Assembly (NCBI RefSeq): GCF_000381265.1
Contig: NZ_KB906280.1
Span: 1 to 64,000, forward strand
Reading direction: 5' to 3'
From: Curvibacter lanceolatus ATCC 14669
GTDB taxonomy: Bacteria; Pseudomonadota; Gammaproteobacteria; Burkholderiales; Burkholderiaceae_C
DNA: 64,000 nucleotides
Part shown: piece after piece, positions 2,014-61,499 of the stretch
How positions within the stretch are numbered: position 1 is the stretch's first letter
Layout of the letters: every line of letters begins with the position of its first letter
Made by a program: the position numbers and the translations under genes
The notes under the pieces: model-generated
Seen by the model: the letters and a program-made list of their open reading frames with translations, nothing else
Databases searched by the model: none
What the model was told of the DNA's origin: nothing

Positions 2014-3123
2014 TCAGCCCAGCACCTGGGCCGCTGCCGAGCTGAGCGCCACGCGCACCAGGTCGGCCTGGCGCGAGGTGCCGGTCTTGGCCAGGGCCAT
2101 CTTGAGCTGGTTGCGCGCCGTACCCAAGGCAATGCCCCGCTGCGTGGCGTGCAGCTCCACGGTCTCGCCTTGCGCCAGGGCGGCCACCAGCCGGGCTTCG
2201 GCCAGGGTCAGGCCCAGCAGCTTGGCCCAGATGTCGGGCGGCACGTTCACCAGGTCTTGCGCGCTGGTGACGGCCAGCATCACCGAGCGTGCGCCTTGCG
2301 TATCCACCGAGCTGGCACGCAGCGCGATGTGCAGGGGGCCATGCCCGTTGTCGATCACGGTGTAGTGCACGGCGCGGGCCGTATCGCGTGCGGCGGCCGC
2401 GATGTCTTCATGCAGGCGGGCGGACAGGCCGGGGCTTTGGGCCCGCAGCAGGCCGCCGCGGCTCGACAGGCCCCGCTCGGCACCGGTGAGCAGCATGGCG
2501 CTGTGGTTCATCCATTGCACCTGGCCCTGCTCATCGCAGGCGATCAGGGCGCAGCGCAGCATGTCGGCGTGCTGCTGCTGGCGTTGCATCTCGGTGCGGG
2601 CCGACAGCAGTTGCTGCCCCAGCTCGCAGGCCTGGCTCAGGTGGGGGGCGAGGGCGGCCAGCCGATCCTCGCTGTGGCGGTCAAAGGTGTCGGGGTCGCC
2701 CCAGGGGCGGTGCAGGGCGATGCCCAGCAGGCGTCCGTCGGCCAGGGGCTGCAGCGCCCCCATGAATTCGCCCAGGCCGATGCGGGCCAGATCGGCCTGC
2801 AGCGTGACACGCCCCGGGTCGTGCCGGTCAAACAATTCATCGTCGCGCACCACGCGGTTCAGGCCGCGCTTGAAGCGGTGTGTCTGCAGGCGCGGGTTGT
2901 GCTCACCCGTGACCTGGGGGCAGTCGAGCGGCCTCTGGCGTTGTGTGCGCGAGTCGCTGGCCTGCCAGCCCAGGCGCACGCCTTCGGTGCCCAGCTCGAA
3001 AGTCTGCACCACGGCCGAGCAGGCACCGGTCTCTGCACACAGCTGGTCCAGAGCCATGGTCCAGTGGGCCGGTTGCGACGCGCAGGCGTAGAGCTGAAGC
3101 AAAAGCTCGTCTTTGTTGTTCAT
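2014..3123 (-). CDS. LuxR-type HTH transcriptional regulator
   Basis: A 369-aa protein whose last 65 residues form a LuxR-type helix-turn-helix (LGLTLAEARLVAALAQG ... LGTARNQLKMALAKTG). The N-terminal region (about 1-170) has no recognisable receiver or autoinducer domain, and a PAS-like segment (about 190-290, CDEQGQVQWMNHSA) precedes the HTH. Such PAS-LuxR proteins are common orphan regulators of neighbouring catabolic genes. It is transcribed divergently from the amidohydrolase at 3407, with a 283-base shared region that contains a perfect 16-base palindrome. The inducer is unknown. Confidence 0.8.
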   Translation of the reverse strand: MNNKDELLLQLYACASQPAHWTMALDQLCAETGACSAVVQTFELGTEGVRLGWQASDSRTQRQRPLDCPQVTGEHNPRLQTHRFKRGLNRVVRDDELFDRHDPGRVTLQADLARIGLGEFMGALQPLADGRLLGIALHRPWGDPDTFDRHSEDRLAALAPHLSQACELGQQLLSARTEMQRQQQHADMLRCALIACDEQGQVQWMNHSAMLLTGAERGLSSRGGLLRAQSPGLSARLHEDIAAAARDTARAVHYTVIDNGHGPLHIALRASSVDTQGARSVMLAVTSAQDLVNVPPDIWAKLLGLTLAEARLVAALAQGETVELHATQRGIALGTARNQLKMALAKTGTSRQADLVRVALSSAAAQVLG

Positions 3124-59934: not shown

Positions 59935-60312
59935 TCACTGCGCTTGGGCGCAATCCCACGTCCACCGGTAAATCTTCATCTTGTCCACCTGCTCACCCTC
60001 GGTGAACAGCCTCAGGCATTGGCGCCCCTTGCGGTAGTTGAAGATGCAGATGGCCCGGTCCATGGCGCAAGACTCCACTTCGGCAATCGCCTGCTGCCGC
60101 AGCGCCTTCTCGGTGCCCATGAACTCATCGTTGGCGTGGAGGTGCACATCCAGTGGCTGCCAGCCCTGGGCGAGCAAGTGCTGCCGCGTGGGGAGAAAGG
60201 GGGCCCCGGGGTGTAGCTTGGCAGCGGTGGCTGGTGTGGCTGGGGAGAGGGCGGCTGCGCAGAGAAGGGGCAGCAGGGAATGGTGGGGTTTGAGGCGGGG
60301 CTGGTGGGGCAT
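59935..60312 (-). CDS. Small secreted protein of unknown function
   Basis: A 125-aa protein with a signal peptide (MPHQPRLKPHHSLLPLLC... ending TPATAAK) and a mature part of about 95 residues with EVESCAMDRAICIFNY and RWTWDCAQAQ, containing four Cys, presumably two disulfides. I have seen similar secreted proteins in Comamonadaceae without an assigned role. It borders the accessory patch with the CRISPR repeat. Confidence 0.65.
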   Translation of the reverse strand: MPHQPRLKPHHSLLPLLCAAALSPATPATAAKLHPGAPFLPTRQHLLAQGWQPLDVHLHANDEFMGTEKALRQQAIAEVESCAMDRAICIFNYRKGRQCLRLFTEGEQVDKMKIYRWTWDCAQAQ

Positions 60313-60513
60313 AGGGTCGTTCAGGTGTTGCAGGCGGATGGAGCTAAGCCGTTGTTGCACGAGATTGACCTGACTGCGTAATTTACAGGAAGAGTTGCCG
60401 TTGAATCTGATTCAATGCAGTTGACGGAATGCTCCTTTTGCCATTGCGCTGTACTGAACAGCACTTCATTGTGGGTGAACGGAACGGGAGCACCCTCCCA
60501 CCCCAGGGGTCGA

Positions 60514-60541
60514 TTTCTAAGCTGCCTACGCGGCAGTGAAC
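60514..60541 (-). CRISPR. Solitary type I-F CRISPR repeat (28 bp)
   Basis: The 28 bases match the type I-F repeat: on the minus strand it begins GTTCACTGCCG, has the Cas6f hairpin arms CTGCC/GGCAG, and ends GCTTAGAAA. From memory it differs from the Yersinia pestis repeat at only two central loop positions. No second full copy is present. GTTCAC recurs 33 bases away on one side (60475-60480), and a partly similar block (GTAG..GCA..GAAA) lies 32 bases away on the other (60574-60601). No cas gene is in the window. The transposase fragment begins immediately beyond. Confidence 0.75.
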
Positions 60542-60587
60542 CGAGCTTGAGCAGCTCTTTGGAGTTGGCAGGCCTTTCAGATTGCCA

Positions 60588-61499
60588 CTACAACAGGGTC
60601 AATTGAGCGTCGATGGTTGGCTTGTTGGTCTTGAGAGCAGCCAGGACTTGAGCCTGGCGGGGTTGCAGGGTGGGCACGCCGTGGATGGGCGTGGCGTGAT
60701 CGATGCTGACGGTGTGGCGCTGGATGCGGCGCAGCTCGGCCAAGGCGGCCTCTGGCGACAGATCGCTGCTGGCGAGCTTCAGACGCTGACGCATGACGCG
60801 GTAGAGGATGAGCGCCATGAAGCAGATGCTGGCGTGGGCCTTGATGCGCTCGGGCAGGCGATGGAATACCGGAGCGATCTCAATCTCGGACTTGAGCACC
60901 TTGAAGCCGCGTTCGATGTCGGCCAGTGACTTGTAGCGCCTAACGATCTCGGTGGGGGTCATGTCGGGGACGTTGGTCACCAGCATGAGCTTGCCATCCA
61001 TGAGCTGGGCCCTGGCCAGGGCGGTCTCATCGATCGTGTCGCTGAACAGATCGGATTGCAAATCCACTTTGATGATGCCCGCCAGGTGGGCATTGCTGAC
61101 TTCGTGGAAGAAACGTGCCTTGGCTCCTGAGTCGGAGAGTTTGCGACCACGCCGGACTTTGCCCTTGTCCTGAGCGTCGAGCTTGCCTGCCAACTGATCC
61201 GCACGTTGCTGCAAGGCATGGATGCGCGCCAAGCGCACCTGGGTCTGCTCAGCCGCACGCAAGGGGTTGTGCGCCACCACCAGACGGTGGCCTTGCCACT
61301 GGGCCTCCTGCTCGATCTCCTCGCTGGCCTGGATGGCTTGTGCGCTCATGGCCTCCAGCAAATCGACAAACTCGCCATAGCGGCGTCCCGGCACGGCCAG
61401 GATGAATTCCAATGGCCGCGCACCGGCCACGTGCAGCTTGGCCAGCGCCTCGATGTTGTCCGGCGAGAGCCAACCCCGGTCGGCACCGGCGTCGTTATC
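60588..61499 (-). pseudogene. 5'-truncated IS1634 family transposase
   Basis: About 304 residues of the C-terminal half of a DDE transposase. The second catalytic Asp region (ADRGWLSPDNIEALAKL) and the Glu-containing helix (YKSLADIERGFKVLKSEIE), followed by RIKAHASICFMALIL, identify the IS1634 family. Intact members are about 550 aa, so roughly the first 45% with the first catalytic Asp is lost and the protein cannot transpose. A GTG at 61430 could still start translation of the remnant. The frame opens at a stop codon at 61500. Confidence 0.85.

What the first reader, a model, noticed from the sequence alone, without database searches (positions are those of the whole stretch)
60514..60541. 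Solitary type I-F CRISPR repeat beside a truncated transposase
A complete 28-bp I-F-type repeat is present once. On the minus strand it starts GTTCACTGCC and ends GCTTAGAAA, with the Cas6f hairpin intact. GTTCAC recurs at 60475-60480, one repeat-plus-33 bases away, and on the other side, 32 bases away, a block partly like a repeat runs into the transposase end. This looks like an array remnant of one or two spacers whose leader side was replaced by the IS. Another possibility is a stand-alone repeat used by a Tn7-like or regulatory system. The match is to remembered consensus repeats.
Basis: partly seen in the sequence, partly recalled or inferred. Interest (0 to 1): 0.8.

Follow-up and report, generated by a model that had tools for sequence, protein, structure and literature searches.

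The report
Broken end of a CRISPR array
A single perfect CRISPR repeat sits beside a broken transposase gene; it is most likely the last surviving piece of an old type I-F immune memory array in a genome where the two matching Cas proteins looked for are missing, so it is probably ordinary genomic debris rather than a working system.

Summary
The 28-mer at 60514-60541 (minus strand) is a real type I-F repeat: Rfam CRISPR-DR4, 45.9 bits against a gathering score of 35. It is the only copy in the 6.83 Mb genome at up to 3 mismatches. The identical 28-mer occurs in 17 stretches of other genomes; 16 show a regular array, one lies at a stretch edge. Downstream, 33 bases (60513-60481) lead to GTTCAC, where a next repeat would start. 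Those 33 bases match Acidovorax phage ACF1 at 29 of 33, over exactly the spacer interval, but the CC PAM is missing. The upstream "repeat-like block" is IS1634 sequence, and this IS copy is truncated at both ends. Cas6f and Cas7f were not found in this genome, which has a type I-E locus instead. Best reading: the leader-distal end of a decayed I-F array (repeat, last spacer, repeat stub) whose leader side was lost together with IS-associated rearrangement. An RNA anti-CRISPR or phage-borne mini-array is less likely but not excluded; a I-F3 transposon guide is contradicted by the missing Cas proteins. Low interest.

The parts
60514..60541 (-). Complete 28-nt type I-F CRISPR repeat (last intact repeat)
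   Evidence: Rfam RF01317 CRISPR-DR4, 45.9 bits, positions 1-28; exact copies in I-F arrays of other genomes
60481..60513 (-). 33-nt spacer, probably the leader-distal one, similar to a phage sequence
   Evidence: 29 of 33 identical to Acidovorax phage ACF1 2932-2964, aligned exactly to these boundaries even with a 199-nt query; E 2e-3 as a 33-mer; 33 nt is a minority spacer length (20 of 347 spacers)
60475..60480 (-). GTTCAC, 6-nt stub of a degenerate terminal repeat
   Evidence: position one repeat plus 33 nt from the intact repeat; chance about 0.00075 for three offsets; degenerate terminal repeats recognisable by eye in 6 of the 11 array ends visible
60382..60474 (.). Former trailer side: sequence without a match in relatives, between the array end and the conserved gene
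   Evidence: homology with sibling genome G002 stops at 60381; in 60 relatives and 399 family genomes every listed match that touches 60382-60565 takes in the repeat or starts at the IS edge
60542..60565 (-). 24 nt between repeat and clear IS homology: remainder of a second spacer or IS-end debris, undecided
   Evidence: 60542-60573 has no phage match at E up to 0.5 and resembles none of 777 spacers from fetched arrays better than shuffles (9 of 50 as good); not leader-like compared with leaders printed
60566..61484 (-). IS1634-family transposase remnant, truncated at both ends
   Evidence: homology limits; named IS1634 in plasmid records; Pfam DDE_Tnp_1 below its cut-off; the end motif seen in 12 of 12 compared copies is missing here

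Best explanation
This is the leader-distal end of a former type I-F CRISPR array: one intact repeat, the last spacer (33 nt) and a 6-nt stub of the terminal repeat, followed by trailer sequence. The leader and the other repeats are gone, and the I-F Cas proteins looked for (Cas6f, Cas7f) are not found in this genome. The side towards the leader now abuts an IS1634 remnant that is itself truncated at both ends, so the loss most likely came with insertion followed by deletion. It probably does nothing now: no Cas6f to process it, no Cas7f to assemble on it, and no leader ahead of it. Shown: repeat identity, solitude, spacer-length spacing, phage similarity over the exact interval, no Cas6f or Cas7f match, IS truncation. 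Inferred: the order of events, the role of the IS and the lack of present function.
For: The repeat is a full-length CRISPR-DR4, identical to repeats that sit in regular arrays in 16 of 17 stretches from genome contigs, the other one lying at a stretch edge. The 33 bases after it match phage ACF1 over exactly 60513-60481; the reversed 33-mer finds nothing at E up to 10 in the same collection, and the 32-mer on the other side finds nothing at E up to 0.5 (best listed E 0.9). The 33-mer occurs in 1 of 399 family genomes, only this one, at up to 3 mismatches, so it is not a common chromosomal element there. GTTCAC sits at the next-repeat position, and true I-F arrays often end in a degenerate repeat (6 of 11 visible ends, my reading). 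A genus member has array, Cas6f and Cas7f; this genome has neither protein. IS copies compared show that this one lost its end.
Against: The ACF1 match has 4 mismatches and is preceded by GC, not the CC that I-F systems need (PAM recalled; flank), so ACF1 itself is not a proper target. ACF1 carries the motif twice as a 43-bp tandem unit, so it could be a motif shared for another reason. The spacer is 33 nt, whereas 323 of 347 spacers in fetched I-F arrays are 32. The terminal repeat is only 6 nt, and 5 of 11 array ends show no recognisable terminal repeat. No better protospacer was found. No relative with the intact array at this locus was found.
Confidence: 0.85

Rival explanations
1. A solitary repeat unit acting as an RNA anti-CRISPR (Racr) left by a prophage: a small RNA mimicking the repeat would capture Cas6f and Cas7f of an incoming or former I-F system.
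For: Solitary, intergenic, perfect repeat, as in the Racr definition (PMC10651486: abstract and sections 5, 6, 9 and 30 read). In sibling genome G002 a phage-type endolysin and a second phage-type protein lie about 2-3.4 kb from the point where collinearity with the window resumes. A genus member has a I-F system that such an RNA could inhibit.
Against: The exact 28-mer occurs in no IMG/VR contig. Among 40 viral stretches with a near-identical repeat, 31 are arrays, 5 have it within 100 bases of a stretch end (one of these visibly a cut array) and 4 are internal solitary repeats, none of which has GTTCAC at 31-34 bases downstream. Of the two flanking window proteins given to PHROGs, one had no match and the other one match of unknown function. 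In a 126-nt context the repeat hairpin is not in the minimum-energy fold. No promoter-like site in 60300-60750, but this is weak, since shuffles give only 0.1 on average. A spacer-like phage match is not expected.
Confidence: 0.07
2. A mobile-element-borne mini-array (one complete repeat, one spacer, one truncated repeat) that used a host I-F system against a competing phage, rather than the end of a chromosomal array.
For: The anatomy (complete repeat, spacer similar to a phage, truncated repeat) is the mini-array form described for viruses (PMC8616872, passage seen). Phage-type genes near the equivalent site in G002.
Against: No plasmid record covers more than 16% of 60300-60640 (20 of 35 records listed, all over the repeat) and no phage record more than 18% of 60382-60580. 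The host has no Cas6f or Cas7f match. The same anatomy arises at the trailer end of ordinary arrays.
Confidence: 0.05
3. A stand-alone guide repeat of a Tn7-like (I-F3 CAST) transposon.
For: The genome has three TniQ matches, two of them adjacent in a Tn7-like tnsA-tnsB-tnsC-tniQ-tniQ module on another contig.
Against: No Cas6f and no Cas7f match in the genome; the repeat is on contig C28, the TniQ loci on C14 and C16; no second repeat in the genome at up to 3 mismatches.
Confidence: 0.01
4. Chance, or another conserved element that only resembles the repeat.
For: Only one copy.
Against: 45.9 bits, E 6e-9; 0 matches in 100 shuffles of the window; the identical 28-mer lies in arrays in 16 of 17 other stretches.
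Confidence: 0.01

Closest known systems
Type I-F CRISPR arrays (Rfam CRISPR-DR4), e.g. G001 contig C8 and a Comamonadaceae MAG (L091)
   Same: Same 28-nt repeat (identical in L091; 2 differences in G001), same order of repeat then spacer, degenerate terminal repeat as at 6 of 11 visible array ends
   Different: One repeat instead of many, no leader, no Cas6f or Cas7f in the genome, IS remnant at the leader side
Orphan I-F arrays of E. coli (CRISPR4) left after loss of I-F cas genes (Almendros et al. 2016, not read; described in PMC8616872, passage)
   Same: Small I-F remnant in a genome without the I-F Cas proteins and with a I-E locus
   Different: The spacer here has no match at up to 9 mismatches in 15 fetched stretches with CRISPR loci, of which only some hold cas genes; it resembles a phage
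RacrIF1 and other solitary repeat units (PMC10651486)
   Same: Single intergenic I-F repeat
   Different: Not in a virus or prophage as far as seen; followed by a spacer and a repeat stub

Membership tests
Type I-F CRISPR array (remnant) | 28-nt I-F repeat with Cas6f hairpin | tested here: met
Type I-F CRISPR array (remnant) | At least two repeats separated by a spacer of about 32 nt | tested here: inconclusive
   one complete repeat, 33 nt, then only GTTCAC
Type I-F CRISPR array (remnant) | Spacer derived from a mobile element with CC PAM | tested here: inconclusive
   29 of 33 match to phage ACF1 over the exact interval, but GC instead of CC
Type I-F CRISPR array (remnant) | Leader before the first repeat | tested here: not met
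   IS remnant and 24 unassigned bases instead; expected for a remnant, speaks against a functional array
Functional type I-F system | Cas6f and Cas7f encoded in the genome | tested here: not met
   0 matches in own genome; found in 1 of 9 genus genomes
RNA anti-CRISPR (Racr, solitary repeat unit) | Solitary full repeat in an intergenic region | tested here: met
RNA anti-CRISPR (Racr, solitary repeat unit) | Carried by a virus, prophage or plasmid | tested here: inconclusive
   no exact repeat in IMG/VR; no phage or plasmid record sharing the flanks; but phage-type genes near the equivalent site in G002
RNA anti-CRISPR (Racr, solitary repeat unit) | Expressed and inhibits I-F interference | not testable with these tools
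   needs RNA and interference assays; the consensus promoter scan found none, expected 0.1
I-F3 CRISPR-associated transposon | TniQ with I-F Cascade (Cas6, Cas7) and nearby array | tested here: not met
   TniQ present on other contigs but no Cas6f or Cas7f match

The most novel reading that the evidence does not exclude
The unit (repeat, phage-directed spacer, truncated repeat) was brought in by a now-decayed prophage at this site as a mini-array or repeat-mimic RNA that acted on a I-F system of the host or its relatives, and was fossilised when the IS rearranged the locus.
Probability: 0.1. Interest if true: 0.45.

Novelty: new member of a known kind. Interest (0 to 1): 0.18.

Why it matters
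It documents a loss step of a I-F system in a genus where one of nine members keeps array, Cas6f and Cas7f and where this genome has a I-E locus. It also shows that a search counting solitary repeats as RNA anti-CRISPR candidates should check for a spacer and a repeat stub next to the repeat before calling it one. Beyond that it is ordinary.

Tried and rejected
Upstream 'repeat-like block': rejected, it is IS1634 sequence. Tn7-like guide: rejected for lack of Cas6f and Cas7f matches, although TniQ is present elsewhere. Anti-cas spacer as in E. coli: neither the 33-mer nor the 32-mer upstream matches any of 15 CRISPR-bearing stretches I scanned at up to 9 mismatches; not all of these hold cas genes. 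Self-target: no second own-genome match to 60382-60541 at E 1e-3. Shared spacer: some matches run from the repeat into the upstream bases (for example G212 to 60566 and G340 to 60581); the G212 one needs three gaps, G340 was not examined, and against 777 distinct spacers from fetched loci the upstream 32-mer does no better than shuffles (9 of 50 as good) and neither does the 33-mer (42 of 50). Search for a better protospacer: none in IMG/VR with two valid patterns, none in plasmids better than E 3, none in 69 viral loci encoding an ACF1 primase relative at up to 10 mismatches; a small ACF1 neighbour protein found no relatives; the ACF1 region has no other record in the phage collection. Folding of the longer stretches was no better than shuffles, and the hairpin is lost in the 126-nt fold. 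The bases 60542-60565 could not be assigned. A search of family genomes for other solitary I-F repeats was not run. Cas8f, Cas5f and Cas3 of type I-F were not searched for in the genome. One literature search for single-repeat remnants with IS gave three papers, none read; two searches listed papers, of which only PMC10651486 (abstract and four sections) and PMC8616872 (passages) were opened.

Full report
The repeat. The minus strand of 60514-60541 reads as a complete type I-F repeat. Against Rfam it matches CRISPR-DR4 end to end at 45.9 bits, gathering score 35, E 6.1e-9 for the 2,501 bases searched. Folded alone it gives the expected 5-bp hairpin (12 of 200 shuffles fold as well); in a 126-nt context the minimum-energy fold no longer holds that hairpin. 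It is alone: one match at up to 9 mismatches in the window, one at up to 3 mismatches in the 6.83 Mb genome of 72 contigs, completeness 99.3% (the pattern was one base too long and is void), and none in 100 shuffles of the window.

Where the same repeat occurs elsewhere. The exact 28-mer was found in 17 stretches of the genome-contig collection. In 16 of 17 the stretch shows further repeats at regular spacing (only two in L093); in the remaining one (L089) the repeat lies at base 2 of the stretch, so nothing can be said. The record titles include Comamonas, another Comamonadaceae bacterium, Pseudomonas, Vibrio, Massilia and Burkholderia. No IMG/VR contig has the exact 28-mer. So the letters are those of real I-F arrays; no other conserved element with them was seen.

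The downstream side is a spacer. From the repeat to GTTCAC at 60480-60475 there are 33 bases. In fetched I-F arrays 323 spacers have 32 bases, 20 have 33 and 4 have 31 (n = 347). A 199-base query (60382-60580) against 50,697 phage records matched 16 records; the best by E-value is Acidovorax phage ACF1, 29 of 33 identical, aligned exactly from 60513 to 60481 (E 0.05, the other 15 at E 8; letters). The 33-mer alone gives E 2e-3. Controls: the 33-mer written backwards gives nothing at E up to 10, and the 32-mer on the other side of the repeat gives nothing at E up to 0.5 (the rows listed at the looser limit have E 0.9). The 33-mer occurs in 1 of 399 family genomes at up to 3 mismatches, this one only, and has no plasmid match better than E 3. 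Against this reading: the ACF1 site is preceded by GC instead of CC (the CC PAM of I-F systems is recalled, not looked up), and ACF1 carries the motif twice as a 43-bp tandem unit in an intergenic region. Two valid pattern searches of IMG/VR and a scan of 69 viral loci with a primase related to that of ACF1 found no better protospacer. I therefore treat ACF1 as a relative of the source at best, not the source.

The end of the array. GTTCAC at the right place has a chance of about 0.00075 over three offsets. After it the sequence is no longer repeat-like. Real I-F arrays behave similarly: I printed 12 array ends, one of them cut off; among the 11 visible I recognise by eye a degenerate terminal repeat in 6 (L054, L078, L081, L087, L088, L092) and none in 5. 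By contrast, of 40 viral stretches with a near-identical repeat, 31 are arrays, 5 have the repeat within 100 bases of a stretch end (L229 is visibly a cut array) and 4 have an internal solitary repeat; none of those 4 has GTTCAC at 31-34 bases downstream. Direction and stub both say that the window holds the leader-distal end.

The upstream side. Homology to IS1634-family copies runs from about 60566 to 61484. The block that looked partly like a repeat at about 60574-60601 is part of it: it aligns to the repeat no better than shuffles (296 of 300), and copies of the IS in other genomes carry the same letters there. I compared 12 of the 16 IS-like loci that one search returned; all 12 have a conserved end motif beyond the stop codon, 10 exactly and 2 with one difference. 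The window lacks it, so this IS copy is cut on that side as well as inside the transposase gene on the other. The bases 60542-60565 may be the rest of another spacer or IS debris; I cannot decide. They do not resemble the leaders seen, and the 32-mer 60542-60573 resembles none of 777 spacers from fetched loci better than shuffles do (9 of 50 as good).

The locus. To the left, a hypothetical gene (59935-60360, no Pfam or PHROGs match) has an 87% homologue in sibling genome G002, and similarity stops at 60381. To the right, from 61480 on, the window is 97% collinear with another contig of G002, where a phage-type endolysin and a second phage-type protein of unknown function lie about 2-3.4 kb to the far side of the boundary. 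So 60382-61479 has no collinear counterpart in the G002 stretches compared, and a prophage at or near this site in the past is possible.

The genome. Cas6f (PF09618) and Cas7f (PF09615) gave no match in this genome or in 7 other members of the genus; 1 of 9 genomes (G001) has both, with 44 matched repeats whose usual form differs from the window's at 2 positions. Other I-F Cas proteins were not searched for. This genome has a type I-E locus in which Cas1, Cas5, a Cas6e-type protein, Cse1 and Cas3 were recognised beside an array of about 40 repeats. TniQ proteins exist, two in a Tn7-like module and one in a Tn402-like module (module names from the Pfam content, my reading), on other contigs; without Cas6f and Cas7f a I-F3 element using this repeat as guide is not to be expected.

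Interpretation. The simplest account is an old I-F array whose leader side and cas genes were lost, with IS1634 involved, leaving repeat, last spacer and a stub. RNA anti-CRISPRs (PMC10651486, abstract and sections 5, 6, 9, 30) and virus-borne mini-arrays (PMC8616872, passages) are the serious alternatives. They are disfavoured by the lack of phage context in the window itself and, for the anti-CRISPR, by the spacer and stub; the absence of a promoter-like site says little, since shuffles give 0.1 on average. They are not excluded. Orphan I-F remnants are known from E. coli strains, described in the same review passage next to their I-E system, so this is a new instance of a known kind.

Noticed in passing
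L121 (G000 contig C21:56000-75900): Type I-E CRISPR-Cas locus (Cas1, Cas6e-type, Cas5, Cse1, Cas3 recognised; Cas2, Cas7e, Cse2 not tested) with an array of about 40 repeats in the same genome.
   Followed up: partly
L197 (G000 contig C14:130500-141500), 1341-6722: Tn7-like module tnsA-tnsB-tnsC with two adjacent TniQ genes; target and cargo not examined.
   Followed up: partly
L198 (G000 contig C16:1-9000), 1864-6436: Tn402-like transposition module: Mu-type transposase, TniB, TniQ and a resolvase.
   Followed up: no
L072 (G002 contig C42:1-12000), 3010-4390: Phage-type endolysin and a further phage-type protein lie about 2-3.4 kb from the place where the window's right flank (61480 on) begins in the sibling genome.
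   Followed up: partly
L122 (phage ACF1 record), 2932-3017: Two tandem copies of a 43-bp unit in an intergenic region, of unknown role; the window's spacer resembles 33 bases of it.
   Followed up: partly
L211, L222, L224, L237 (IMG/VR contigs): Internal solitary I-F repeats in viral contigs; candidates for RNA anti-CRISPRs.
   Followed up: no
   Followed up: no
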